Source: Caldifarciminota bacterium
GTDB taxonomy: Bacteria; Hydrothermota; UBA3072; B12-G15
Direction of reading: 5' to 3'
DNA: 13,465 bases
NCBI GenBank assembly: GCA_021163525.1
Contig: JAGGTX010000098.1
Coordinates: 1 to 13,465, forward strand
How positions within the stretch are numbered: the first letter of the stretch is position 1; every line of letters starts with the position of its first letter. Positions 3 to 13,465 of the stretch are shown here, one piece after another. The notes beneath the pieces are model-generated. The model was not told the origin of the DNA and made no database searches. It saw only the letters and a list, made by a program, of their open reading frames with translations. A program made the position numbers and the translations under genes.

Positions 3-503
3 AAAAAGGTGAGAATGGAATGGTTTATCAAGGGCAAGGAGATCTGTGAGAAACTTCTGAAGAAGTATCCAGAGAATGCTGAACTCCATTACTGGCACGC
101 AGTGAACAGGGCAAAGGAGGGTGAGGCAAGGGGTGTGATGAGTTCCCTGTTTATGGTGGATGATTTAAAGAAGGAGGCCAACCTTGTCCTGAAATTGAAC
201 CCAGAGCATGCAGGCGCACATGTGTTGCTTGGAGGCATCTACGACGCACTTCCTGGATTTGCGGGTGGAAGCAGGGACAAGGCAATCCAGCATTACAAAC
301 AGGCAATCCAGAATGATTCAACATATGTTGCAGCATACACAAGGCTTGCAGAGGACTTAATCAAGAAAAAGAAGTATGATGAGGCAAGAGAGATTTTGCA
401 AAAACTTTTGAATCTGAAAAATCCAAATGATGCAAGGCTTTATTACCTTGAAGACAGGCCAAAGGCCGAAAAGATGCTGAAGGAACTGGAGGGAAAGAAG
501 TGA
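3..503 (+). CDS. TPR repeat protein, 5'-truncated by window edge
   Basis: The reading frame is open back to the first complete codon at 3, so the true start probably lies outside the window; an in-frame GTG at 9 has no visible ribosome binding site. The 166 visible residues are mostly helical and carry tetratricopeptide-type repeats. One lies around the stretch ending KKYPENAELHYWHAV, one around VLKLNPEHAGAHVLLGGIY, one around HYKQAIQNDSTYVAAYTRLA, and one around KKKKYDEAREILQKLL. An insert with LPGFAGGSRDKA between repeats resembles a loop seen in TPR proteins of the TRAP-T/RMDN-like type (recalled from family knowledge, not searched). TPR proteins are protein-binding scaffolds and no enzymatic residue is seen. 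The stop codon overlaps the next gene's GTG by 4 bases, so the two are translationally coupled. The partner and cell location cannot be told from the visible part. Confidence 0.8.
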   Translation, partial: KKVRMEWFIKGKEICEKLLKKYPENAELHYWHAVNRAKEGEARGVMSSLFMVDDLKKEANLVLKLNPEHAGAHVLLGGIYDALPGFAGGSRDKAIQHYKQAIQNDSTYVAAYTRLAEDLIKKKKYDEAREILQKLLNLKNPNDARLYYLEDRPKAEKMLKELEGKK

Positions 504-1705
504 AAAATTCCATGCCGGTCCTTCAAAAACTTGTCAAGGACGAAGGTGGAAAGATTATACTCCTTGTGATGGATGGATTGGGCGGACTCCCTGTGGATGG
601 GAAGACCGCCCTTGAACTTGCAAGGACACCCAACATGGATAGACTTGCCTCACTTCACTCAGTCGCACTCATGGATCCTGTGTTCCCTGGTATCACCCCT
701 GGAAGTGGACCTGGCCATCTTTCACTCTTTGGTTACGACCCGCTTGAGTATGATATAGGAAGAGGAATACTTGAGGCACTTGGTGTGGATATGGAGGTTC
801 TTCCAGGCGATGTAACAGCAAGGGGAAACTTCTGCACAATAAAAGAAGACATCGTTGTTGATAGAAGGGCTGGAAGGATACCCGATGAAAAGAACAGGGA
901 ACTGATAGAGAAATTAAAGGAAAGCATCAAGGAGATAGATGGTGTTCAGGTGATACTTAAAAGTGGTAAGGAGCATAGATTTGTTGTTCTATTCAGGGGT
1001 GAAGGACTGACTGGTTCTGCAACAGACACAGACCCTCACAGGGAGGGTGAACCCGTTTTGAAGTCTGAACCTGTTGATGGTGGAGGAAGAATAGCAGATG
1101 TTGTGAACAAGTTCTCCGTGCTCGCAAGGGAGATTCTAAAGGATGAGAAACCTGCAAACGGTGTAATCCTGAGAGGGATAACAGGTGCACCCCACATTCC
1201 TGCGTTTCCTGAAATCTACAAAATGAAATCACTGGCCATTGCCACCTATCCCATGTATCGTGGAATTGCTAAACTTCTGGGTATGGATGTTGCCCAGATG
1301 ACTGGAACCAGTGTTAAAGACGAGATAGATATTCTGAAAAAACATTACAACGATTATGACTACTTCTTTGTCCACATAAAAAAGACAGATTCCTATGGAG
1401 AGGATGGCAATTTTGAAGGGAAGGTGGGTGTGATTGAAGAGGTTGACAGGCTGATCCCTGAAATCCTGAATCTCAAACCAGATGTCCTTGCAATCACTGG
1501 TGACCATTCAACCCCTGCATCATACAAGGCACATTCCTGGCATCCTGTCCCTCTCCTTCTTGTATCAAAGTGGACAAGGATAAGTGGTGTGAAGGGGTTC
1601 AATGAGAAGGAGTGTGCCTTAGGGGATATGGGAAGAATCCCTGGTATTTATCTTACTTCCCTATTACTTGCACACGCAGGCAGGCTTGACAAGTACGGTG
1701 CATGA
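500..1705 (+). CDS. apgM: 2,3-bisphosphoglycerate-independent phosphoglycerate mutase, archaeal type
   Basis: Predicted to interconvert 3- and 2-phosphoglycerate in glycolysis and gluconeogenesis in the cytoplasm, without a 2,3-bisphosphoglycerate cofactor. The 401 residues match the usual ApgM size. Alkaline-phosphatase-superfamily metal and nucleophile motifs are visible. An N-terminal VMDGLGG (Asp25) is present. A GSGPGHLSLFGYDP segment carries Ser69, which aligns with the phosphoserine nucleophile of iPGM in NSxxGH. KKTDSYGEDGNFEGK lies in the C-terminal third, followed by TGDHSTP and HSWHPVP metal ligands. The start is GTG at 500, with GGAGGG at 488-493 six bases upstream; it overlaps the TPR stop by 4 bases. 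The end overlaps the next ATG by 4 bases. Some relatives in this family have been proposed to be alternative homoserine kinases, so the mutase call is by similarity. Family membership is secure and the exact substrate slightly less so. Confidence 0.9.
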   Translation: MKNSMPVLQKLVKDEGGKIILLVMDGLGGLPVDGKTALELARTPNMDRLASLHSVALMDPVFPGITPGSGPGHLSLFGYDPLEYDIGRGILEALGVDMEVLPGDVTARGNFCTIKEDIVVDRRAGRIPDEKNRELIEKLKESIKEIDGVQVILKSGKEHRFVVLFRGEGLTGSATDTDPHREGEPVLKSEPVDGGGRIADVVNKFSVLAREILKDEKPANGVILRGITGAPHIPAFPEIYKMKSLAIATYPMYRGIAKLLGMDVAQMTGTSVKDEIDILKKHYNDYDYFFVHIKKTDSYGEDGNFEGKVGVIEEVDRLIPEILNLKPDVLAITGDHSTPASYKAHSWHPVPLLLVSKWTRISGVKGFNEKECALGDMGRIPGIYLTSLLLAHAGRLDKYGA

Positions 1706-3090
1706 TAGTCTTTCTCATTTCCCTCATAAAGGTATTATACTTCTTTGACCCACACTGCCCTGATTGTGAGGCAGTGAAAGAGAATGTTCTGCCCCAGGTT
1801 GAGAAATTATCCTATGTAAAGATAGTTCCCCTTTCTGTTGAAAAGATAGAAAACATGAAACTCCTTATGGAGATAGAAGATGAGCACAGGGACTATGACA
1901 ATGCCATTCCCGTGGTAGTTGTTGGTGATAAGATCTTCGGGAACAGAAAAGAGATAGAGGAAGGACTCGTCAAATACCTCAAGTCTCTAAATCCAGAACA
2001 GAACATAAGTGCAAAAACAAAATTAGAAAAGGATACCCTGAAACTTGAAAATCCCGTTTATGTTCTGTATTTCTATTCAAAAGGATGCCTGAAATGTTCA
2101 AAGGTTGACCTCTACCTGAATACACTTGTGAAGGAATTCCCCGCCCTCCACATTAAAAGGATGGATGTGCTTGAGCATGCAGGCCTTCTTCTATCAATAG
2201 AAAAACGGCTTGGAATAGATAAAGAAAAATATCTGGTTACACCTGTTGTAATCCTTGATACACTTGTTTTTTTCCAGAGCGACATCCACCGGCTGCGTGA
2301 TGCAATTGTCAAGACTTCAAAGGAAGGAGGGAATCTTCCCTTCTGGCAGAATTACAGGGAAGAAAAGGTCTATGGACTTCTGAAGGGCATGAAGGCAACA
2401 GGGGTATTCCTTGCTGGACTCATTGACGGTATAAATCCCTGTGCATTTGCAGTCCTTATATTCCTCATGGCATTTCTATCCATGAGGGGTGGCAGGCGTG
2501 AGATACTCTGGGGAGGTATTCCTTTCATCATTGCTGTTTATATCACTTATCTGTCAATTGGTATGGGACTCTTTTCATTCTTCAGGGGTCTGGAGGGTGT
2601 CAAAAATATAGGGAAGGCAGTCTATATCATGAGTGGTATTTTTGCCCTTGTGCTCGGGCTCTTGAGTTTCAGGGATGCCATCCTTTACAGGAATGGCAGG
2701 GATATGGCACTCCAGATGCCAGAGAGATTCAAAAAACTTGTTAAAGGAACCATAAGGAAGGGGTTTGGTAAAGGAGCAATACTCTTTGCAGGCCTTTTGA
2801 TTGGATTCCTTGTTACACTCTTTGAATTCACATGCACAGGTCAGGTCTACTTCCCCGTGCTTGCATACCTTGCAAAGGACCCAATGGTGAGGATGCACGT
2901 ATTCAGAATGCTCCTCATATACAACATTGGATTTATCATTCCCGCAATTATTGTGTTTTCCCTTGCCCTGTTCGGGTTTGGTCAAAGGGAATTCAACAGG
3001 TTTCTTATAAAGAGGGTGGTATTCATCAAGGCATTGACGGGCACCCTGCTTCTTGGAATTGGAACGGCAGTCCTTATTTATTCCATTTAA
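1702..3090 (+). CDS. Double thioredoxin-domain / CcdA-like membrane thiol-redox protein
   Basis: The 462-residue protein has two thioredoxin-like domains followed by a CcdA/DsbD-type membrane domain. Domain one (about 10-95) has the redox pair CPDC (Cys19, Cys22) and a cis-proline-like AIP at Pro70. Domain two (about 117-205) has CLKC (Cys129, Cys132) and a TP at Pro181. From about 232 there are six hydrophobic segments. Segment one has GINPCAF (Cys247) and segment four has EFTCTGQVY (Cys378), the two-cysteine arrangement by which CcdA/DsbD passes electrons across the membrane. The protein probably carries reducing power from cytoplasmic thioredoxin to the extracytoplasmic face, for disulfide reduction or cytochrome c assembly; its final substrate is unknown. 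The hydrophobic N-terminus is short and runs straight into domain one, so the export signal is not clear. The ATG overlaps the apgM stop by 4 bases (ATGA). Confidence 0.82.
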   Translation: MIVFLISLIKVLYFFDPHCPDCEAVKENVLPQVEKLSYVKIVPLSVEKIENMKLLMEIEDEHRDYDNAIPVVVVGDKIFGNRKEIEEGLVKYLKSLNPEQNISAKTKLEKDTLKLENPVYVLYFYSKGCLKCSKVDLYLNTLVKEFPALHIKRMDVLEHAGLLLSIEKRLGIDKEKYLVTPVVILDTLVFFQSDIHRLRDAIVKTSKEGGNLPFWQNYREEKVYGLLKGMKATGVFLAGLIDGINPCAFAVLIFLMAFLSMRGGRREILWGGIPFIIAVYITYLSIGMGLFSFFRGLEGVKNIGKAVYIMSGIFALVLGLLSFRDAILYRNGRDMALQMPERFKKLVKGTIRKGFGKGAILFAGLLIGFLVTLFEFTCTGQVYFPVLAYLAKDPMVRMHVFRMLLIYNIGFIIPAIIVFSLALFGFGQREFNRFLIKRVVFIKALTGTLLLGIGTAVLIYSI

Positions 3091-3117: not shown

Positions 3118-4317
3118 TTACATGCCCCTGAAAACAAATGAGGCAAGGACATTCACATTGCTCTGGGAAACATCGTTTCCATAGAATGTGTATGAACTTG
3201 GACCAATCTGCATTGAAAAGTCAAAGTTTATGTTTGGAAGAAGAAGACCCGTTCCAAATGTGATGTATTTCCCAATGACCTGGTCACCTTCATTACCATT
3301 CATATCTGTGTTAAAGTAGGTTCTGGGGTCTGTCATAAATCCAAGCCTCAACGGGATTCCAACAGGACCAAGGCTGAGAAGATACTCAAGCCCAACCCTA
3401 AATTGATTACAGTCAGGCAGCTCATTATTATATGTAGTTCCGTTCTCCTCAACCTCCATGTTACTGTACTTTCGCATCTCGTAATCAACAGAGAATGTGA
3501 GTGAGGAGAAGTTTAGTGCCACACCAAAACCAAGCATCATGGGCCAGTGAAGTATTGCAGAATCCACATAGGTGGTATCAAAATCAGAATATGCCCCCGT
3601 TCCAATTGCATGTATGTCATAATCTTTGTTGTATTTCATACTGAATGGCAGCCTCATTGTTGCACCAATCTTTACAAATCCACCTGGAGGTGTTATCAGT
3701 CCTCCAATAACAACACCAAATCCCAAAACATCATAATTTCTGGTTTGCGTGTAATCCCAGGTTCCACTTGAATCAGAATAGTAATATTTATACTCATCAG
3801 TTGGTCCCTTGAACCAGATGTCTGTTGCAGCACCTATTGCTACCATAGGAAGGTCTATGGCAATTGCAGGGGTTATAGCGCTGTATGCACCAGAAACCTC
3901 AAGTGTTTCTATGTGTGACGAATCAACAGTATAATCATAATATGAATATGTATCAAATGCATAAACATCAATCATACTGTGGTATGCAGCAGCAATAACA
4001 AGATTTGAAAATCCTGTTGAAACTGGCATGACAAGGGAGGCAAAATCTATTGTGCCGTGTGAATAAGAGTACCAATCATCTCCATTTAATGTTGCAGTTT
4101 CCATTTTGAATCCACCCATAATACCAACCTCTGGTTTGATAAGCTGGGTTAATCCTGCTGGGTTCCAGGTAATGGCAGATGCATCATCTGACATTGCTAT
4201 AAATGCACCACCCATACCCAGTGCCCTTGCACCTGAACCCATCAGGTTGAAATTCATCCCCTGTGCAAAGGCAGTAAGTGAAACTGTTGCAAGTGTCAGT
4301 AGAAGCGCCTTTCTCAT
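3118..4317 (-). CDS. PorV/UPF0164-like outer-membrane beta-barrel protein
   Basis: The 399-residue protein is predicted to be exported. It begins with a signal peptide of about 18 residues (MRKALLLTLATVSLTAFA, then QG). The start of the mature protein carries the hallmark GARALGMGGAFIA, then DDASAITWNPAGL (about residues 29-56). This motif is shared by the PorV/UPF0164/FadL-like outer-membrane families. The rest alternates short polar and aromatic stretches with glycines and many tyrosines, as in beta-barrels. PorV itself is part of type IX secretion in Bacteroidetes, but no other such component is seen here, so transport or scaffold roles are both open. It is the last gene of the operon. GGAGG lies six bases before the ATG, inside the 14-base gap to the preceding gene. 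Being co-transcribed with periplasmic partners suggests it is the outer-membrane component of the group. Confidence 0.8.
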   Translation of the reverse strand: MRKALLLTLATVSLTAFAQGMNFNLMGSGARALGMGGAFIAMSDDASAITWNPAGLTQLIKPEVGIMGGFKMETATLNGDDWYSYSHGTIDFASLVMPVSTGFSNLVIAAAYHSMIDVYAFDTYSYYDYTVDSSHIETLEVSGAYSAITPAIAIDLPMVAIGAATDIWFKGPTDEYKYYYSDSSGTWDYTQTRNYDVLGFGVVIGGLITPPGGFVKIGATMRLPFSMKYNKDYDIHAIGTGAYSDFDTTYVDSAILHWPMMLGFGVALNFSSLTFSVDYEMRKYSNMEVEENGTTYNNELPDCNQFRVGLEYLLSLGPVGIPLRLGFMTDPRTYFNTDMNGNEGDQVIGKYITFGTGLLLPNINFDFSMQIGPSSYTFYGNDVSQSNVNVLASFVFRGM

Positions 4318-4331
4318 TTAAAACCTCCTTC

Positions 4332-5471
4332 CTATTTGGTTATAACCCTGTCCCCAACCCTGGGAGTCTCAGTGGATTTCACAATGTGGCACTCGGTGAG
4401 TTTTGGCTGAACAACCCTTGCCACTGCTTCACATACATGGATTATCTTCTTACCCAGAACTTCGCCTGTTACAGGGTTCTTGATTGGTTCACCTTCCCTG
4501 TAAACAACAACCTTGAGCCCCTTCTTTATTCCTTTGTCAGAGCCAATATCAATGAATATGGTTGTGTCCTCCACCTGAACAACATATCCTTCAACCTCTG
4601 GAACATCCGCAACAATCTGGTTCGCTATCTGGTCAACAATCTTCTTTATGGAGGTTATATCCTTGCTGTAAACATAAGCATCCTTTGATGTTATTATACC
4701 CGCAGTCTCTGTATCAATGAGCCTTGCGTCAAGGCTCACTGTTCCTCCTGTTGAGGATACACTTCCAAGCAGAATTGCATCAAGCCCTATTCCCTTACCA
4801 ACACGGGCAGCAGTTGCAGCATCAACAATACCAGAAATCTCAAGTTGCTGTTCCTGTAATACCTTTTCAAGTTCAGCCCTCTCCATGACATCAAATCTTC
4901 CAAGATTCACAAGGGAGGTTATCATCTTATCAAGAACCATGTCACCTATGTCAACGGATAATCCCTTTGTTTCAAAGGGAAGGACCGCAATCTTCATTCT
5001 TTCAACGGGTCTCTCCTTGCTTTTCCGCGGAGCGGGTTTCTGGTATGTAGGAGTGTAGGTATGTGTGGGTGTAGGCATTCCAGGTGCAGGTTTCTGGGTT
5101 GCTGGTGGAGGGGGCTCTACCCCAAGCTTCTTCTTTGTCATGGCAAGGTAGAGTTTTGCCCTGTTTGAGGGCTTCTGTGTCATTGAAAGTTTGAGGAACT
5201 GAAGTGCCTTTTCATACTCACCAAGGAAGTAATAACATATACCTATCTCCCTGTTGGGGTAGTAATCAACAAACACAGTCCCATATGCCCTTATCCTCCC
5301 TGTGTCCCTGGACTTTTTGGAAATAGCCTTTTGAAAGTGTATTATTGCTTCAGCATACCTGCCCTGCTTCATAGCAGTAACTCCCCTTCCGTATACCTCA
5401 TACCACCTTTCCCCTGCCATCAGGGGAATAGCACCAAGAATAACCAGAATCAGGAATGTCCTTTTTATCAT
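4332..5471 (-). CDS. TPR - CsgG-like - FlgT C-terminal-like envelope protein
   Basis: The 379-residue secreted protein begins with a signal peptide (about 1-20, ending PLMAGE). Two or three TPR-like helical repeats follow (about 24-115), with GRYAEAIIHFQKAI and GEYEKALQFLKL. A proline- and threonine-rich linker (about 119-155) contains QKPAP twice. A CsgG/TolB-N-like domain follows (about 159-290): MKIAVLPFE, then RFDVMERAELEKVLQEQ, then GLDAILLGSV. A final beta domain (about 293-379) holds IDIGSDKGIKKG, NPVTGEVLG and the terminal VGDRV, a pattern like the FlgT C-terminal domain. CsgG forms the curli export pore and FlgT forms a ring around the flagellar base; either relation is at domain level only. 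No lipobox cysteine is visible, unlike CsgG. The ATG overlaps the FecR-gene stop by 4 bases. Confidence 0.8.
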   Translation of the reverse strand: MIKRTFLILVILGAIPLMAGERWYEVYGRGVTAMKQGRYAEAIIHFQKAISKKSRDTGRIRAYGTVFVDYYPNREIGICYYFLGEYEKALQFLKLSMTQKPSNRAKLYLAMTKKKLGVEPPPPATQKPAPGMPTPTHTYTPTYQKPAPRKSKERPVERMKIAVLPFETKGLSVDIGDMVLDKMITSLVNLGRFDVMERAELEKVLQEQQLEISGIVDAATAARVGKGIGLDAILLGSVSSTGGTVSLDARLIDTETAGIITSKDAYVYSKDITSIKKIVDQIANQIVADVPEVEGYVVQVEDTTIFIDIGSDKGIKKGLKVVVYREGEPIKNPVTGEVLGKKIIHVCEAVARVVQPKLTECHIVKSTETPRVGDRVITK

Positions 5472-6220
5472 CTTCCCTCTCCCATTTTCTTATCCCTTTC
5501 AAGATTCCATTTCACCCATGGGTCAAGTGTATCTTCCTTCATTGAAAATTCACTCACCCTGTACTGGCCTGTCTTTGAAACCCAGAGTTCCTGCTGTGCC
5601 TTCACAATAACAAACCACTCTTCAAGGCTCACCTCGTGGGGTCCAGGAACAGGATGTGGTCCAGGAACCTGATGTGGTTTCTCAAGTTTCGCCCCCTCCT
5701 TCTTCTTTTGAACAAGGGGTTCGTTCTTCACAGCAACAGAACCTTTGTAAACCCTTATCCTTGTTGAAGAATCAGGAAGGACATCCATACGGTACTCGGT
5801 TCCCCTGACACCTGCAACAACAATGGGGTTTTTAACAGAAAAAACAGACTTCTTCATCAACCTCTTCACCTTTGCCCACAATCTTCCCCTTGGCATAACA
5901 GCCTTGAAGATAATAACAGGGTCACCATACGCATCAAGTCCTTCTATCTGCAGAAAGGAGTTTTCAGCAATTCTCAACACACTCCCGTCAATCAAAGAGA
6001 GTTCAGCCTTTGAATCAAATCCAGTTTTAAGCCATTCGCCTTCCTCAACTGCCTCGTCAAGTGTTGGTTTTTCCCATTCCTTTGGAGGAAGCCTTCGTGC
6101 AACATCACCGTAAAAATAGGAGATTTTGCAGACAGGCTCATTGCTCTCCTCTGCAGTGGTCTGCTCAGCACCAAGGAGGAAGAAAAATATGGGCAGTATA
6201 AAGAGTCCTAATTTTCTCAT
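5468..6220 (-). CDS. FecR-domain secreted protein
   Basis: The 250-residue protein has an N-terminal signal sequence (MRKLGLFILPIFFFLLGAEQ). Its FecR-type domain (about 62-165) is recognised from EWLKTGFDSKAELSLIDGS, the following LRIAENSFLQIEG, VAGVRGTEYRMDV and RVYKGSVAV. FecR domains are beta-rich and extracytoplasmic. In the iron system they signal to sigma factors, but in many other secreted proteins they appear to be structural, and no sigma-factor gene is present here. A Pro/Gly/His repeat (about 183-196) precedes a charged C-terminal tail with WFVIVKAQQELWVSKTGQY. I chose ATG at 6220 over the GTG two triplet positions earlier in the same frame (6223) because GGGAGG at 6225-6230 is four bases from the ATG and only one from the GTG. 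The ATG shares one base with the upstream stop (TGATG), which couples their translation. Confidence 0.8.
   Translation of the reverse strand: MRKLGLFILPIFFFLLGAEQTTAEESNEPVCKISYFYGDVARRLPPKEWEKPTLDEAVEEGEWLKTGFDSKAELSLIDGSVLRIAENSFLQIEGLDAYGDPVIIFKAVMPRGRLWAKVKRLMKKSVFSVKNPIVVAGVRGTEYRMDVLPDSSTRIRVYKGSVAVKNEPLVQKKKEGAKLEKPHQVPGPHPVPGPHEVSLEEWFVIVKAQQELWVSKTGQYRVSEFSMKEDTLDPWVKWNLERDKKMGEGR
5641..5676. repeat. Tandem 18-base duplication inside FecR-domain gene
   Basis: Two adjacent 18-base units (5641-5658 and 5659-5676) agree at 16 of 18 positions. On the minus strand they encode the in-frame repeat HQVPGPHPVPGPHEV, a Pro/Gly/His linker between the FecR domain and the C-terminal tail. It is a simple in-frame duplication and does not break the gene. 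Confidence 0.8.
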
Positions 6221-7392
6221 CACTCCTCCCTATATGTTACCTTGATTGTGATCCTGGATGGTGTCTGTTCTTTCACCTCAACATCAAAGTGGGGCAGTTT
6301 CTTTCTGGTGAGTTCCAGAACAAGTTGCTCTGAATTTCCTTCAAATTCAACCTCAAAGATTGCCTGGCCTGCCTGGAAACCATGGGAGTACAGGCCTTTA
6401 ACGCCCCTGAGTATTGAGGAGAACTCATTCTTAAATGAATATACCTGATTGAAGTTCTTGAATCCATACACAGCCATTTCAATCTTCTGTGTTCCAGTAA
6501 CATCTGCCTGCCATCTTGAAAGAATCTTATTCATGAGGTCCTCTGCAGCAGCCTTTGTAGCCTTCTTTATTGCCTCGTTTCCCGCTGTGATTTCATCTAT
6601 GTGAACAGCAGCACCATGCTTTGAAGAGACAGCAATAATCTCACCATTGGATACATCAATTGCCCTCAGGGTGACATCTGCCTGGCCTGATTTCATATCC
6701 CCAAGCATTTTCATACCTGAAACGGCCTTAGCCACTGCTTTTCCAACGATGATGACCTCTGCCCTGAAGGCAAGTCCAAGTGCCTTTGCTGCCTCAACAT
6801 CACCTGAAATTGCTGCAAGTGCACGGGTTCTATCAAGTTTTGCCTTTGCAGCCTCCTGGTCAATGAATGAAAAGCCCCTGGACATGAAGGTTTCCATCAC
6901 CGTGTTCTCTGCTGTGTTGAGGTTTACATCAATCACTGTTCCAGAGGCACTCCCAACATTGTTTTCCTGGATAAGAACCATCATCCTGGGAAGGTTTTTC
7001 CTTCTCAATAGAAGCCCGATTGCAGCAAGGTCGTCCTTCACCATGCCCTTTTTCACATATGCCTTCACCTTCACCTCATAGATAAAGTCGTTCTTCTTTC
7101 CTTCGTTCAGGATTTCATACCTCTGGACATACCCTGTTGAACGGGAGTAAATCCTGTCGTCTATGGTCATAAAATTCTTGGTGATTGTCTCTGATGAGAG
7201 GAGCATCCCAACGGTCTGCTCAACCGCATTCCTCAGGGCATTCTCAATTGCATCGTCCCTTGCCTTTGCAAGGTCCCCCTGAACAATGCTCCCATCACCT
7301 ACAGCCTCAACAATGGCGACCTCACCACTACTTGTTTCCTGTGCAGGTTGCTGTGAAATCAAAAAGAGGGTAATTAAAATTAAATTTACCAT
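6220..7392 (-). CDS. FlgT-like exported protein
   Basis: The 390-residue protein has a short hydrophobic N-terminus (MVNLILITLFLISQQ), probably an export signal although it lacks the usual positive charge. Residues about 24-115 resemble the FlgT N-terminal domain: VEAVGDGSIVQGDLAKARDD, then NALRNAVEQTVG, then RIYSRSTGYVQRYEI with alternating strands after it. The middle part (about 135-297) looks CsgG/TolB-N-like, with MMVLIQEN, GFSFIDQE, AKALGLAFRAEVIIVG and VTLRAIDVSNGEI. The last 90 residues form a separate alpha/beta domain. FlgT is a periplasmic ring protein of the polar flagellum in Vibrio, but no flagellar gene is nearby, so only domain kinship is claimed. ATG 7392 is preferred over GTG 7398 because GAGG at 7398-7401 is well spaced for it. 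The gap to the upstream stop is 7 bases. Confidence 0.7.
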   Translation of the reverse strand: MVNLILITLFLISQQPAQETSSGEVAIVEAVGDGSIVQGDLAKARDDAIENALRNAVEQTVGMLLSSETITKNFMTIDDRIYSRSTGYVQRYEILNEGKKNDFIYEVKVKAYVKKGMVKDDLAAIGLLLRRKNLPRMMVLIQENNVGSASGTVIDVNLNTAENTVMETFMSRGFSFIDQEAAKAKLDRTRALAAISGDVEAAKALGLAFRAEVIIVGKAVAKAVSGMKMLGDMKSGQADVTLRAIDVSNGEIIAVSSKHGAAVHIDEITAGNEAIKKATKAAAEDLMNKILSRWQADVTGTQKIEMAVYGFKNFNQVYSFKNEFSSILRGVKGLYSHGFQAGQAIFEVEFEGNSEQLVLELTRKKLPHFDVEVKEQTPSRITIKVTYREE

Positions 7393-7399
7393 GGACACC

Positions 7400-8524
7400 T
7401 CACAGGTTTGCCTTTACCCTCTTCATTATAAGAAGGGCATCCTTGCCAGGAACCTTATCAGAAAGCCCAAATGTTCCATCAAGTTTTGCCTTCATTATTC
7501 CCCTTGTTGTGACAAGCATCACTGCATTGAATGCAAAGTGGGAATTTGGAACATCGGGGAATGGTGAGGTGCTTCCAATGAACCTTGTGGTGAGCGAAGG
7601 GTCTTTCAGGAGACCCGCAAGAAGATTCTGAACAGCCATGGCAAAGTTTGCCCTTGTGATCGGCTCATCCGGATGGAACTTTCCATCTGGATATGGCTCC
7701 ATTATGCCGAGTTCCATAACCTTCATTATATAGTGTTTTGCCCAGTGGTTATTTACATCGGATGGAAGTTCGGTCCCCGCTTTTCCTGCAGGCTTACCCA
7801 TCACTGACTGCTGCTGTGGTGCATAAAACTTCTTTGCCTCTGGAGGACCAGGCTTCTTTGTAATCTTGTCAAGGTCAAGTTCAACAACAAAGAGTGCGGC
7901 CAGGTCAGCCCTTGTTATTGCAGGACTCCTTGCTATAGCAAGATACTGTGGAGGAAGACCAGCAGCAGCCCTTCTCATATCCTGCATCATCTGCCATCTT
8001 GAATTCAGTTCCTGAGAATTGGGAAGGTTCTTCATGCCTTCGCTGTAAACCTTCTCTGCCTCATCATACTTCTGCATGTTCACAAGTGCATCTGCCTTAT
8101 AGATGTAGGCATCCTCAAACTTTGGATTGTTTTTCAAAGCCCTGTCAAACCACTTTATAGCACCCTTGTTGTCACCCTTTGCCATGAGCACCCTTCCCTT
8201 TGCAACCATTCCTGGAACGAAATTCTTGTCCCTTTTCAGGCAGTCATTTGCATACTTTTCAGCCAGTTTCAGGTCTCCCTTTGCAAGATAAACCAGTGCC
8301 ATTCCCTCATATGCAGGTGCATAGTTTTTATCAAGAAGTATTGCCCTGTTGAACTCCTTCCTTGCCTCATCAACCTGATTCTGTTTGAGAAGCCTCTTAC
8401 CCTCTGCATAGTGTGCCTGGGGTGTATCCATGAGACCACCAGGTGTGACTGTCTGCTTCTTTGCACATCCTGTTCCAAGAACAACAAAGGAAATGATTGC
8501 TATTATCAGTAATAATTTTTTCAT
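7400..8524 (-). CDS. TPR lipoprotein with C-terminal SLH domains
   Basis: The 374-residue lipoprotein begins MKKLLLIIA with a lipobox-like LGTGC, predicting lipidation at Cys20. Four TPR units follow (about 37-171), for example QVDEARKEFNRAILLDKNYA and KGDNKGAIKWFDRALKNNPK. A linker comes next, with one weak SLH-like piece (SPAITRADLAALFVVE). Two S-layer-homology-like domains follow: about 254-303 (SDVNNHWAKHYIMKV, PYPDGKFHPDEPITRANFA) and about 322-370 (FPDVPNSHFAFNAV, IMKAKLDGTFG). SLH domains bind peptidoglycan-linked polymers, so the protein may tie a membrane to the cell wall while its TPRs hold partners. The start at 8524 is chosen because AGGAGG lies five bases upstream and the signal peptide then starts properly; the frame is open nine codons further upstream. 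The gap to the preceding gene is 19 bases. Confidence 0.87.
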   Translation of the reverse strand: MKKLLLIIAIISFVVLGTGCAKKQTVTPGGLMDTPQAHYAEGKRLLKQNQVDEARKEFNRAILLDKNYAPAYEGMALVYLAKGDLKLAEKYANDCLKRDKNFVPGMVAKGRVLMAKGDNKGAIKWFDRALKNNPKFEDAYIYKADALVNMQKYDEAEKVYSEGMKNLPNSQELNSRWQMMQDMRRAAAGLPPQYLAIARSPAITRADLAALFVVELDLDKITKKPGPPEAKKFYAPQQQSVMGKPAGKAGTELPSDVNNHWAKHYIMKVMELGIMEPYPDGKFHPDEPITRANFAMAVQNLLAGLLKDPSLTTRFIGSTSPFPDVPNSHFAFNAVMLVTTRGIMKAKLDGTFGLSDKVPGKDALLIMKRVKANL

Positions 8525-8543
8525 TCTTGCCTCCTTTCCTGAT

Positions 8544-9353
8544 TCAATCAACGATTATCATTACACGGCACTGTTCAAGAAACTTGAGGTTCTCACTGTA
8601 CTGATGGAGTCTCATTGCATCATTGGGGGATATAATAATGTCGGTTTTGTTGGGACCAGTTACGCCGATCGCCTTTATTATCAATGGATTTGGCTTGACC
8701 CTGTCGTCATTCCTTGCCTGTTCTATATTTTTTGCATAACCTGCAATACCCATCTCAACAGCGTATTCCCTTGAAACAAAACCCGTACCATAAACCTCAA
8801 CCCCATCAGGGGTAACTATCTTTGGTGCCATTGCAGGCTGAACCTTGAATCCCCTTGCATCAATAATAAGACCGGTGAATATTCCTCCGGCCTGGGGCTG
8901 AACCAGTGGGGAATTCATTCCAACCTGCTGAGGGAGCAGGGTGTTTATCATTTCACCAGTAAGGGGAACCTCCACATCCACTTCAATGGAGCCATCGGAC
9001 ATGTATCTTATGTCTGTGACTGTGAAGTTACTTACAATTCCGTTGATTTTTGTCTTGATAACATCGGAAACAGTCATTGCGTTCTCAACAGTGGTTTCTG
9101 CATCAATGTAAACCCCCTTAATGGTTTCAAGAATATTCCTCAATGCATCAAGTTTTGCTGCCCTCAGTGCACCCGCCCTCTGTGCAGCAAGTGGGACATC
9201 AGGATTTGGAGCACCAATACCAGTTGCCTTCACAACACACCTTGTCCAGTCAATTGCACCTGCTGGCATCTGCTGGACATAATCATACCCTCCTGAAACC
9301 TGTGCAGATAAAAGATAACCCAGGAGGAGTGAAAGGATAAGACCTCTTCTCAT
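8544..9353 (-). CDS. LPP20-domain exported protein
   Basis: The first gene of the six-gene operon encodes 269 residues with a signal peptide (MRRGLILSLLLGYLLSA). The LPP20-type domain (about 40-130) shows VVKATGIGAPNPDVP, the long helix AAQRAGALRAAKLDALRNIL, ETTVENAM, and the strand pair DIRYMSDGSIEVDVEVPL. A second conserved-looking domain (about 155-269) has FTGLIIDARGFKVQPAMAP, EVYGTGFVSREYAV, DIIISPNDA and CRVMIIVD. I recall this as a frequent partner of LPP20 domains. LPP20 proteins include a Helicobacter lipoprotein and flagellar FlgP. Here no lipobox is seen, so the protein is probably soluble or bound to partners. ATG 9353 is chosen over GTG 9359 because GGAGG at 9359-9363 is five bases before the ATG and overlaps the GTG. 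Confidence 0.8.
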   Translation of the reverse strand: MRRGLILSLLLGYLLSAQVSGGYDYVQQMPAGAIDWTRCVVKATGIGAPNPDVPLAAQRAGALRAAKLDALRNILETIKGVYIDAETTVENAMTVSDVIKTKINGIVSNFTVTDIRYMSDGSIEVDVEVPLTGEMINTLLPQQVGMNSPLVQPQAGGIFTGLIIDARGFKVQPAMAPKIVTPDGVEVYGTGFVSREYAVEMGIAGYAKNIEQARNDDRVKPNPLIIKAIGVTGPNKTDIIISPNDAMRLHQYSENLKFLEQCRVMIIVD

Positions 9354-9386: not shown

Positions 9387-9416
9387 AAATTATGAACATC
9401 CATACTCTTTTGTCAA
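9387..9416 (-). promoter_or_regulatory. Promoter of the six-gene envelope operon
   Basis: On the minus strand a perfect TTGACA -35 (9411-9416) is followed, after 18 bases, by TAATTT (9387-9392) as -10; ATAATT one base earlier gives 17. The predicted leader to ATG 9353 is about 27 bases and contains the GGAGG. It is the only good promoter seen upstream of this operon. Confidence 0.55.
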
Positions 9417-9707: not shown

Positions 9708-10997
9708 ATGGATGCATTAATCCTTGCAGCAGGTGATGGAACAAGGATGGGTTCTTCCAGACCCAAAGTTCTCCTCTCAATCAATGGAACGACACTCCTT
9801 GAACATCATATCAATGCACTTAATGCTTTGGGAATTAAGAAAATATACATTGTAACCGGTTATAAACACCAGGATATTGAGAAGTTTATAAAAGAGAAGG
9901 GATACAGGAATGTTTTCACAATATACAATCCAGACTGGGAGAAGGGGAATGCTTATTCTGTTATTGCTGGTGAAAAATTTCTAAAAAGGCCATTTCTTCT
10001 TGTTATGGGGGACCATTACTACCAGTTGTCCCCTTTAAGACCCCTTGTTAGAATGAAGGCGGATTTTATGATGGTGGTTGATTCAAATCCAGGGTATGTG
10101 GATGTGGATGAGGCCACAAAGGTGAGGTTTAAAAACGGGAGGGTTGTGGATATTGGAAAGGGATTAAAGGTATTTGATGCCGTTGATACGGGAATCTTCC
10201 TTCTTTCACCCTCAATCTTTCCATTCATAAAAAATTCAATCAAAAATGGTGCAGAGACCTGGAACGATGTAAAGAGATTGTGGATAGAAAAAAATCCCCT
10301 GCCTCTCTATGATATAAATGGGTCGCTGTGGTATGATGTTGATACACCAGAGGATTTTGAAAACCTGAAGAGGATTATTAAAGAGAGGGAAATAATAAAG
10401 GCAAGGGATGGTATAATATCAAAAACCCTGAACAGAAGGATATCCTCATGGCTCTCTCAACACCTTGTAAAAACCCGAATTACACCAAATCAGATTACAA
10501 TTATTTCATTTGTGATAGCCCTTGCTTCAGCAGTTTTCTTTGGTCTTGGAAGAAGATGGAGCTTGATTATTGGAGGCCTCCTCATACAGCTTTCTTCAAT
10601 TGTTGATGGATGTGATGGAGAGATAGCCAGATTAAAGAAACTATCATCAGCATATGGGGCTTGGCTTGATTCTGTGCTTGACAGGATTGCAGATGCTGCA
10701 GTGATTACAGGCATGGCATGGGGAGCATCCCATCAGTTTGGCTGGATAGTCTGGCCGCTTGCAATGATTGCCCTTGCTGGCTCACTCAGTGTGAGTTATA
10801 CAGAAACAAGGTATGAGGCCCTTTTCAGAAAACCACTGGACAGCTCAAAAGAGATACCTGCAAAAAGGGATATGAGGCTTTTTCTCTTTATGCTTGGTGG
10901 TATCTTCAACCTCATTCCCCATGTCTTTCTGATTGTATCTACACTCTCCTTTGCAGAGGTTTTGAGACGGCTGCTGCTACCCACTGCTGAGGAGTAA
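9708..10997 (+). CDS. Bifunctional inositol-1-phosphate cytidylyltransferase / DIPP synthase
   Basis: The 429-residue fusion probably makes CDP-inositol from CTP and inositol-1-phosphate, then joins it to a second inositol-1-phosphate to give di-myo-inositol-phosphate phosphate. After dephosphorylation that yields the heat-stress solute of hyperthermophiles. Residues about 1-225 are a nucleotidyltransferase: LAAGDGTRMG at 6-15, Lys20, and the metal-binding MGDH at 100-103. Residues about 235-425 are a CDP-alcohol phosphatidyltransferase with several membrane segments. This domain has the full signature of four aspartates (Asp300, Asp303, Asp321, Asp325), with GEIAR and Gly317 at the right spacing. 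Start: AAGGAGG lies five bases before the ATG. It is transcribed alone; no inositol-1-phosphate synthase gene is in view. Another CDP-alcohol product, such as an inositol or sugar phospholipid, is possible, but the fusion order fits the known IPCT-DIPPS enzymes. Confidence 0.82.
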   Translation: MDALILAAGDGTRMGSSRPKVLLSINGTTLLEHHINALNALGIKKIYIVTGYKHQDIEKFIKEKGYRNVFTIYNPDWEKGNAYSVIAGEKFLKRPFLLVMGDHYYQLSPLRPLVRMKADFMMVVDSNPGYVDVDEATKVRFKNGRVVDIGKGLKVFDAVDTGIFLLSPSIFPFIKNSIKNGAETWNDVKRLWIEKNPLPLYDINGSLWYDVDTPEDFENLKRIIKEREIIKARDGIISKTLNRRISSWLSQHLVKTRITPNQITIISFVIALASAVFFGLGRRWSLIIGGLLIQLSSIVDGCDGEIARLKKLSSAYGAWLDSVLDRIADAAVITGMAWGASHQFGWIVWPLAMIALAGSLSVSYTETRYEALFRKPLDSSKEIPAKRDMRLFLFMLGGIFNLIPHVFLIVSTLSFAEVLRRLLLPTAEE

Positions 10998-13148: not shown

Positions 13149-13164
13149 CCACTACATATTGTGT
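13149..13164 (-). promoter_or_regulatory. NrdR box, promoter-distal copy
   Basis: Read on the minus strand this is ACACAATATGTAGTGG, matching the NrdR box consensus acaCwAtATaTwGtgt at 14 of 16 positions. It lies just downstream of the predicted transcription start and upstream of the AGGAGG. Its start is 32 bases from that of the second box, the usual three-helical-turn spacing for the ATP-cone repressor NrdR. The nrdR gene itself is not in the window. Confidence 0.75.
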
Positions 13165-13175
13165 TTTGTGAAAAG

Positions 13176-13203
13176 AATATATACTATATATTGTGCTTGT
13201 CAA
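13176..13203 (-). promoter_or_regulatory. Promoter of the ribonucleotide reductase gene
   Basis: On the minus strand a perfect TTGACA -35 (13198-13203) and TATATT -10 (13176-13181) are 16 bases apart. Transcription would start near 13169, giving a leader of about 40 bases. The spacer between the two elements is almost entirely occupied by an NrdR box. Confidence 0.65.
13181..13196 (-). promoter_or_regulatory. NrdR box, copy between -35 and -10
   Basis: Read on the minus strand this is GCACAATATATAGTAT, matching the NrdR consensus acaCwAtATaTwGtgt at 14 of 16 positions. It fills the spacer of the promoter, so bound repressor would exclude RNA polymerase. Together with the copy at 13149-13164 it forms the tandem arrangement typical of NrdR-controlled genes. 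Confidence 0.78.
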
Positions 13204-13262
13204 GGTTTTATTCTCTGCGGAAAAATGTCAAATTTTCAACTTCCGTCCCCAGGGATGTACTC

Positions 13263-13290
13263 TTGCCATTACCCTTTTATACAGTATAAT
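13263..13290 (+). promoter_or_regulatory. ffh promoter, probably producing a leaderless mRNA
   Basis: TTGCCA (13263-13268) and a consensus TATAAT (13285-13290) are separated by 16 bases. The -10 ends only six bases before the ATG at 13297, so transcription would begin at or within a base or two of the start codon. No AGGAGG-like site is present, unlike most other genes here. Confidence 0.6.
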
Positions 13291-13296
13291 TCAGGT

Positions 13297-13465
13297 ATGT
13301 TTGAACAGATTTCAGGAAGGCTTCAAAAAATCATAAGGAATTTTGGTAAGAAGGGAAGGCTCACACCCGAAAGGGTTCGTGAGGGACTGAAAGAGGTGAG
13401 GCGTGCCCTCATAGAGGCGGATGTGAATGTTGAGGTGGCCAGAGAGTTTATAAAGATGGTTGAGG
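13297..13465 (+). CDS. ffh: Signal recognition particle protein Ffh, 3'-truncated by window end
   Basis: The first 56 residues are the N-domain of Ffh/SRP54, the GTPase that binds signal sequences of nascent membrane proteins with 4.5S RNA and delivers ribosomes to FtsY. The start MFEQISGRLQKIIRNFGKKG, followed by LTPERVREGLKEVRRALIEA and DVNVEVAREFI, is the characteristic helical opening of the family, so the ATG is well fixed. The GTPase and M domains lie outside the window. FtsY shares a related N-domain, but its start is normally preceded by a longer variable region, so Ffh is favoured. It is divergent from the ribonucleotide reductase gene. Confidence 0.92.
   Translation, partial: MFEQISGRLQKIIRNFGKKGRLTPERVREGLKEVRRALIEADVNVEVAREFIKMVE

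What the first reader, a model, noticed from the sequence alone, without database searches (positions are those of the whole stretch)
3118..9353. Six-gene all-envelope operon of unknown function
Six consecutive minus-strand genes run from one promoter, with gaps of 19, 7 and 14 bases and overlaps of 1 and 4. Every product has an export signal or lipobox. The set is LPP20 protein, TPR-SLH lipoprotein, FlgT-like, FecR-domain, TPR-CsgG-FlgT_C-like, and a PorV-like barrel. Together they offer a membrane anchor, a cell-wall binder, ring-type modules and an outer-membrane barrel, as expected of a trans-envelope complex. I know of no named system with this composition. A function in export, outer-membrane tethering or surface assembly is inference.
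Basis: partly seen in the sequence, partly recalled or inferred. Interest (0 to 1): 0.72.

Follow-up and report, generated by a model that had tools for sequence, protein, structure and literature searches.

The report
FlgP/FlgT-type ring operon without flagella
This operon encodes relatives of proteins that form rings around bacterial flagella, next to a lipoprotein with a cell-wall-binding domain, in bacteria where no flagellar gene was found; it may be an unnamed outer-membrane ring and anchor, which nobody has yet tested at the bench.

Summary
In detail: six minus-strand genes for exported proteins, tightly packed, behind one strong promoter-like motif. g1-g5 belong to a cluster that recurs outside the window's phylum; g6 (PorV-like barrel) is linked only sometimes. 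The tightest pair is g1 with the TPR-SLH lipoprotein g2: all 25 genomes with a strong g2 have g1 within 5 kb, 24 on the same strand, in 18 families; this includes all 10 genomes not used to build the search profile. g1 is a FlgP-type ring domain joined to the D2 domain of Treponema Tp0624; g3 is FlgT-like; g5 is CsgG-like with a FlgT_C-like end. These are flagellar H-ring/basal-disk modules, yet none of the 30 g3-bearing genomes of the phylum has FliF. Outside it, 9 of 20 strong-g2 genomes do, always on another contig. In nine relatives g5 is a full-length CsgG; here both hairpin regions are missing. Best explanation: a flagellum-independent FlgP/FlgT-type ring scaffold under the outer membrane, fixed to the cell wall by the SLH lipoprotein, often with a CsgG-class channel. 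The gene unit is shown; rings, wall binding and transport are inferred. I found no name for it in the libraries and papers searched.

The parts
9389..9416 (-). Promoter-like motif TTGACA-16-CATAAT ahead of g1
   Evidence: Consensus scan, 11 of 12 matches; not evidence of function by itself
8544..9353 (-). g1: exported protein, FlgP-type (LPP20) domain about residues 40-131 plus Tp0624-D2-type domain 157-269
7400..8524 (-). g2: TPR-SLH lipoprotein, probable outer-membrane anchor and wall binder
   Evidence: Pfam TPR_2 2e-20, SLH 4e-20; 16 of 16 relatives have SLH, 14 of 16 TPR_2; Cys20 and the Arg of the first TRAE-like motif invariant in 16
6220..7398 (-). g3: FlgT-like protein (FlgT_N domain, TolB_N/CsgG-like middle domain, C-terminal part not identified)
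   Evidence: Pfam FlgT_N above cut-off; model pLDDT 86, best match FlgT 3w1e E 2.4e-10; 59 of 61 relatives match the LipL46 model below its cut-off in the window
5468..6223 (-). g4: exported FecR-domain protein, role unknown
   Evidence: Pfam FecR 1e-11; near g2 in 14 of 25 strong-g2 genomes
4332..5471 (-). g5: TPR plus CsgG-like domain plus FlgT_C/TsaP-like end; both CsgG hairpin regions missing
   Evidence: Pfam CsgG 1.7e-13; profile end matches TsaP 3jc8 E 2e-13; alignment with nine full-length CsgG relatives
3118..4317 (-). g6: PorV/FadL-like outer-membrane barrel, facultative member
   Evidence: Weak PorV and Toluene_X hits, BamG 51.9 against 250 bits and PorV_fam 46.9 against 90; conserved next to g5 in G001 and G017, near g1-g3-g5-g4 in G275

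Best explanation
The operon encodes a flagellum-independent FlgP/FlgT-type ring scaffold between outer membrane and cell wall. g1 and g3 would form multi-subunit rings against the inner face of the outer membrane. g2, held in the outer membrane by its lipid, would contact g1 and bind a wall polymer through its SLH domain, fixing the rings to the wall. g5 would form a CsgG/FlgT_C-type collar; in other lineages it keeps the CsgG hairpin regions and would be a channel at the centre, while in the window's lineage these are lost and the neighbouring barrel g6 may supply the membrane part. g4 is an exported accessory of unknown role. SHOWN: the gene set, the domain assignments, the conserved linkage (g1-g2 above all), the missing FliF in the phylum's carriers, the missing hairpin regions of g5. 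INFERRED: ring formation (from the FlgP/FlgT family), wall binding (from SLH), g1-g2 contact (from linkage), any channel (from CsgG), any replacement by g6.
For: g1 matches flagellar FlgP without gaps from the helix through the insert that a published C. jejuni motor study connects with ring formation in this family (PMC12222027, passages); g3 does so too against 9hmf, E 1.4e-8. g3's best structural match is FlgT, alone and in the Vibrio LPHT ring. g1-g2 are within 5 kb in 25 of 25 strong-g2 genomes of 18 families, and within 17 bases as open frames in all 10 that were not in the g2 profile. In Tp0624 the g1-type domain pair is fused to an OmpA-like domain (PMC5104382, passages). The Arg that contacts the pyruvylated wall polymer in SLH proteins (PMC10628300, passages) is conserved in the first SLH repeat of 16 of 16 relatives. 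FliF is in 0 of 30 g3 genomes of the phylum and absent from 16 of 25 strong-g2 genomes.
Confidence: 0.45

Rival explanations
1. A mainly mechanical outer-membrane tether: g1-g2, with g3 and g4, fix the outer membrane to the wall as OmpM, Pal or OmpA do; no channel or transport is involved.
For: g1-g2 is the most constant pair and occurs without nearby g3 or g5 in G261, G226 and G367. SLH tethers such as OmpM are known (PMC10628300, passages), and Tp0624 joins the same domain pair to an OmpA-like domain.
Against: Does not explain FlgT- and CsgG-type modules, present near g2 in 17 and 9 of 25 genomes. Tp0624's OmpA-like domain did not bind the usual wall component in the published test.
Confidence: 0.25
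2. A CsgG-type exporter (curli-like or of another substrate), with g1-g4 as its accessory parts.
For: Full-length CsgG domains (E 3e-33 or better) in the cluster of nine relatives of 11 examined; g3's middle domain resembles CsgG and PelC.
Against: The window's g5 and those of G008 and G009 lack both hairpin regions; 16 of 25 strong-g2 genomes have no g5 near; no curli subunit gene was seen, though none was searched for specifically.
Confidence: 0.15
3. Flagellar accessory genes, or relics of them: H ring or basal disk parts in organisms that have or had flagella.
For: The homology itself. 22 of 56 g3 genomes outside the phylum have FliF, and 9 of 20 strong-g2 genomes there.
Against: 0 of 30 g3 genomes of the phylum have FliF, while its five FliF genomes lack g3. 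In all nine strong-g2 genomes with FliF it lies on another contig than g2. g1 carries an extra D2 domain and sits with an SLH lipoprotein, which the H ring does not have.
Confidence: 0.1
4. A collar of the type IV pilus secretin, like TsaP.
For: The g5 end matches TsaP; 19 of 30 g3 genomes of the phylum have a secretin.
Against: 11 of 30 have none found, among them all eight of family f32 and both of f27; the window's own draft genome also shows none, but is 76% complete. No pilus family was noticed as a conserved neighbour.
Confidence: 0.03

Closest known systems
Flagellar H ring of Vibrio (FlgO, FlgP, FlgT) and basal disk of Campylobacter (FlgP)
   Same: FlgP-type domain with the ring-linked insert in g1 and g3; FlgT-like N-terminal and middle domains in g3; FlgT_C-like end on g5
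   Different: No FliF in the phylum's carriers; g1 has a further D2 domain; FlgT_C is on g5, not g3; SLH lipoprotein and FecR protein in the set
Treponema pallidum Tp0624
   Different: Tp0624 adds an OmpA-like third domain; here a separate SLH lipoprotein stands next to g1
Leptospira LipL46
   Same: g3 matches the LipL46 model over nearly its whole length, and so do 59 of 61 relatives
   Different: Far below the equivalog cut-off in the window (55.9 against 400 bits)
CsgG (curli channel)
   Same: CsgG domain in g5; full length in nine relatives
   Different: Both hairpin regions missing in the window's lineage; extra TPR and FlgT_C-like parts
OmpM-type SLH tethers
   Same: SLH domain on an outer-membrane-anchored protein; conserved Arg of the TRAE-like motif
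   Different: Lipid anchor and TPRs instead of a barrel; SLH repeats in one chain at the C-terminus
TsaP (pilus secretin collar)
   Same: C-terminal domain of g5
   Different: No LysM found in g5; secretin not required for presence of the family

Membership tests
Flagellar H ring / basal disk (FlgO, FlgP, FlgT) | FlgP-type domain with the insert between helix and second strand | tested here: met
   Gapless alignment of g1 through the insert with FlgP and of g3 with 9hmf; insert not modelled as a hairpin
Flagellar H ring / basal disk (FlgO, FlgP, FlgT) | FlgT with N, M and C domains in one chain | tested here: inconclusive
   N and M matched over residues 28-297; FlgT_C was not found in g3 but a similar domain ends g5
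Flagellar H ring / basal disk (FlgO, FlgP, FlgT) | Occurs with a flagellum | tested here: not met
   FliF in 0 of 30 g3 genomes of the phylum, drafts; outside it in 22 of 56
CsgG channel family | CsgG domain with two transmembrane hairpins | tested here: not met
   Window, G008 and G009 g5 lack both regions; nine relatives have them. The place of the hairpins is partly recalled; the alignment with solved CsgG reaches only the first
Curli system | Curli subunits and CsgE/CsgF partners | not tested
   Only a sub-threshold CsgE hit in g3 (15.3 against 25 bits)
SLH outer-membrane tether | SLH domain | tested here: met
   Pfam SLH in the window's g2 and 16 of 16 alignment members
SLH outer-membrane tether | Binding to the wall | not testable with these tools
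   Arg of the first TRAE-like motif in 16 of 16, of the second in 14 of 16 with Lys in 2
OmpM | SLH and outer-membrane barrel in one chain | tested here: not met
   g2 has TPRs and a lipid-anchor Cys, no barrel
Tp0624 | D1-D2-D3 with OmpA-like D3 | tested here: not met
   D1-D2 matched, g1 ends after D2
LipL46 equivalog | Score above the NCBIfam cut-off | tested here: not met
   55.9 against 400 bits
Type IX secretion PorV | Score above PorV cut-offs | tested here: not met
   g6: PorV 15.5 against 27, PorV_fam 46.9 against 90, T9SS_OM_PorV 21 against 250 bits

The most novel reading that the evidence does not exclude
A widespread, unnamed, non-flagellar envelope machine: FlgP/FlgT-type rings bolted to the cell wall by an SLH lipoprotein and built round a CsgG-class channel. 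Flagellar H rings and basal disks, and the spirochaete proteins Tp0624 and LipL46, would be borrowings from or remnants of this older system.
Probability: 0.18. Interest if true: 0.85.

Novelty: new variant of a known kind. Interest (0 to 1): 0.65.

Why it matters
It places flagellar ring proteins in a conserved gene set that exists without detectable flagellar genes, so the origin of H rings and basal disks becomes testable by comparison. It gives gene context to two spirochaete envelope proteins of unclear function, Tp0624 and LipL46, and proposes a concrete outer-membrane-to-wall connection in lineages known mostly from draft genomes.

Tried and rejected
Chance grouping: rejected by recurrence in other families. 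Six genes as one fixed set: rejected, g6 is facultative. Flagellar part: disfavoured in the phylum, not excluded outside it. Pilus collar: disfavoured. Type IX secretion: g6 is below all PorV cut-offs. Plasmid relatives: none for g1; for g2 only matches to its TPR or SLH part, no record covering 80% of it.

Naming: the only named relative is QNDZ01000102.1, 'MAG: bacterium isolate B12_G15', which by contig number and length should be G001's contig (my inference). The C-terminal part of g3 (about 300-392) was not searched alone, and each VIA-align list covers only part of its model; families missing from those lists are not excluded.

Limits of the counts. 86 of 390 genomes had g3. I fetched g3 loci for 28 of 29 further phylum genomes (not G074) and 40 of 56 outside; one search counts 69 g3 loci in them (G142 twice), the window not included. 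'Strong g2' means at least 160 bits (25 genomes); I set this line after seeing the gap between 167.7 and 137.5 bits. The 13 weaker genomes (58.8-137.5 bits) were left out; I fetched eight of them and one, G232, had g1 near. The g2 profile was made from 15 members that I had found beside g3 or g1, so the overlap of strong g2 with g3 genomes (25 of 25; the chance value printed) is biased and ignores kinship; the fairer figure is the 10 genomes not in the profile, two of them close sisters of members. Distances run between stop-to-stop frames and are lower bounds. In some searches at most 13 candidates per genome were scored.

After the recount I lowered the best explanation from 0.5 to 0.45 and the novel case from 0.2 to 0.18, because six of the eight newly found strong-g2 genomes have FliF, and raised the flagellar rival to 0.1.
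Full report
OBSERVATION. Six minus-strand genes fill 3118-9353, bounded by a divergent gene (from 9708) and a convergent gene (to 3090), behind a TTGACA-16-CATAAT motif at 9416-9389. Each product begins with an export-signal-like stretch (by eye). The order is g1 (LPP20, just under cut-off), g2 (TPR-SLH, lipid-anchor Cys), g3 (FlgT_N), g4 (FecR), g5 (TPR, CsgG, FlgT_C-like end), g6 (PorV/FadL-like, weak).

DISTRIBUTION IN THE PHYLUM. 147 genomes of the phylum are held. At E 1e-6, g3 is in 30, g1 in 71, many by a more distant LPP20 type, g4 in 34 but strongly (over 400 bits) in 4, g5 in 75 but strongly (over 300 bits) in 5. g2 at E 1e-20 is in 7, full length in 5: G000, G001, G008, G009, G017. 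Of 29 further g3 loci in 28 genomes, 21 have g1 within 5 kb on the same strand; the eight misses are seven loci of family f32 and one contig edge. In the loci fetched from families f15, f18, f27 and f35 most carry a simpler set: a CsgG/LpoB-like lipoprotein, g1 and g3. The six genomes of the order outside the window's family have no g1, g2 or g3 at these thresholds.

DISTRIBUTION OUTSIDE. In 390 genomes g3 is in 86 at E 1e-10, 56 of them outside the phylum. In 40 fetched outside loci, 19 have g1 within 5 kb on the same strand. Over all 69 g3 loci, 12 have at least three of g1, g2, g4, g5 at strict thresholds: G009, G017, G220, G361, G275, G300, G152, G388, G267, G252, G295, G270; 24 have none. 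A profile from the SLH half of g2 finds 38 of 390 genomes, 25 strongly. These 25 lie in 18 families; within 5 kb of g2, g1 is in 25 (24 same strand; in G292 divergent, 2.1 kb away), g3 in 17, g4 in 14, g5 in 9. Fifteen of the 25 were in the profile; the other 10 (G001, G252, G368, G227, G284, G261, G226, G339, G197, G367) all have g1 next to g2, within 17 bases as open frames. G275 carries g5, two PorV-like genes, g1, g3, a full-CsgG g5, g4 and a further CsgG-TPR protein in one locus, which ties g6 to the system; G001 and G017 keep g5-g6 as a pair, and G184 has a PorV-like gene between g5 and g4.

FLAGELLA AND PILI. FliF is in 5 of 147 phylum genomes and in none of the 30 with g3. Outside, 22 of 56 g3 genomes have FliF. 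Of the 25 strong-g2 genomes 16 have none; the nine with FliF (G220, G361, G292, G368, G284, G226, G339, G197, G367) have it on another contig than g2. Against my reading: of the eight strong-g2 genomes new to the g2 search and not close sisters of profile members, six have FliF. All are draft or mostly draft genomes, so absences are not absolute; the window's genome is 76% complete. Secretins are in 120 of 147 phylum genomes; 11 of 30 g3 genomes show none, so the family does not need a pilus secretin.

MECHANISM. The most economical reading is a ring scaffold: FlgP- and FlgT-type rings under the outer membrane, held to the wall by the SLH lipoprotein beside g1, with a CsgG/FlgT_C collar or channel. 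Fusion of the same domain pair to an OmpA-like domain in Tp0624 makes a wall link of g1 plausible, although that OmpA-like domain did not bind the usual wall component in the published test. In Vibrio, FlgO, FlgP and FlgT form the H ring (PMC6375700, passages); in Helicobacter a lipoprotein encoded with flgP forms a ring that protects the outer membrane while the flagellum turns (PMC11756786, passages). Which of tether, channel support or export dominates is open: 0.45 for the ring scaffold, 0.25 for a pure tether, 0.15 for an exporter, 0.1 for a flagellar accessory, 0.03 for a pilus collar.

NOVELTY. 0 of 45 g1 relatives match an NCBIfam model. Paper searches: at least three of LPP20, S-layer homology, TPR, FecR, 0 papers; LipL46 or FlgT, 137 papers, and the listing, which puts papers with both terms first, shows none with both; at least two of CsgG, FlgT, LPP20, 3 papers, all on flagellar motors by title; FlgP with homolog and non-flagellated, 5 papers, none on such a system by title (listing only). 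Most subscription papers and all preprint-server copies are outside that library. The parts are of known kinds; their combination, their linkage and the flagellum-free setting appear new.

Noticed in passing
window 9708-10997 (+): Fusion of a nucleotidyl transferase with a CDP-alcohol phosphatidyltransferase; it resembles, from recall, the enzyme of di-myo-inositol phosphate synthesis of hyperthermophiles.
   Followed up: no
window 1702-3090 (+): Thioredoxin/glutaredoxin-like N-terminal part (weak Pfam hits) on a protein with a membrane-like C-terminal half, by eye.
   Followed up: no
window 500-1705 (+): Cofactor-independent phosphoglycerate mutase of the PF10143 type.
   Followed up: no
window about 13159-13464 (+): Open frame cut by the contig end whose last part looks like the start of a signal-recognition-particle protein (by eye).
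   Followed up: no
L016 8042-8614 (-): A clear LpoB (PF13036, E 8e-35) lies just beyond g1-g3 in G022; similar small CsgG/LpoB-like genes flank g1-g3 in other f15 genomes.
   Followed up: partly
L015 12129-13925 (+): An Omp85 protein with POTRA domains follows g4 in G017, another outer-membrane assembly-type barrel beside the cluster.
   Followed up: no
L014 7139-7918 (-): Two short similar proteins directly after g5 in G009 look like microcompartment shell proteins, by eye.
   Followed up: no
L093 13795-15486 (+): A transglutaminase-core protein follows the cluster in G270; similar genes lie in L065 and L071.
   Followed up: no
L034, L036, L043-L047: Family f32 carries g3 with no g1 nearby although g1-like genes are elsewhere in these genomes; what g3 does there is unexplained.
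   Followed up: partly
window 6220-7398 (-): The Leptospira lipoprotein LipL46 model matches 59 of 61 FlgT-like g3 relatives, which suggests LipL46 is itself FlgT-like.
   Followed up: partly
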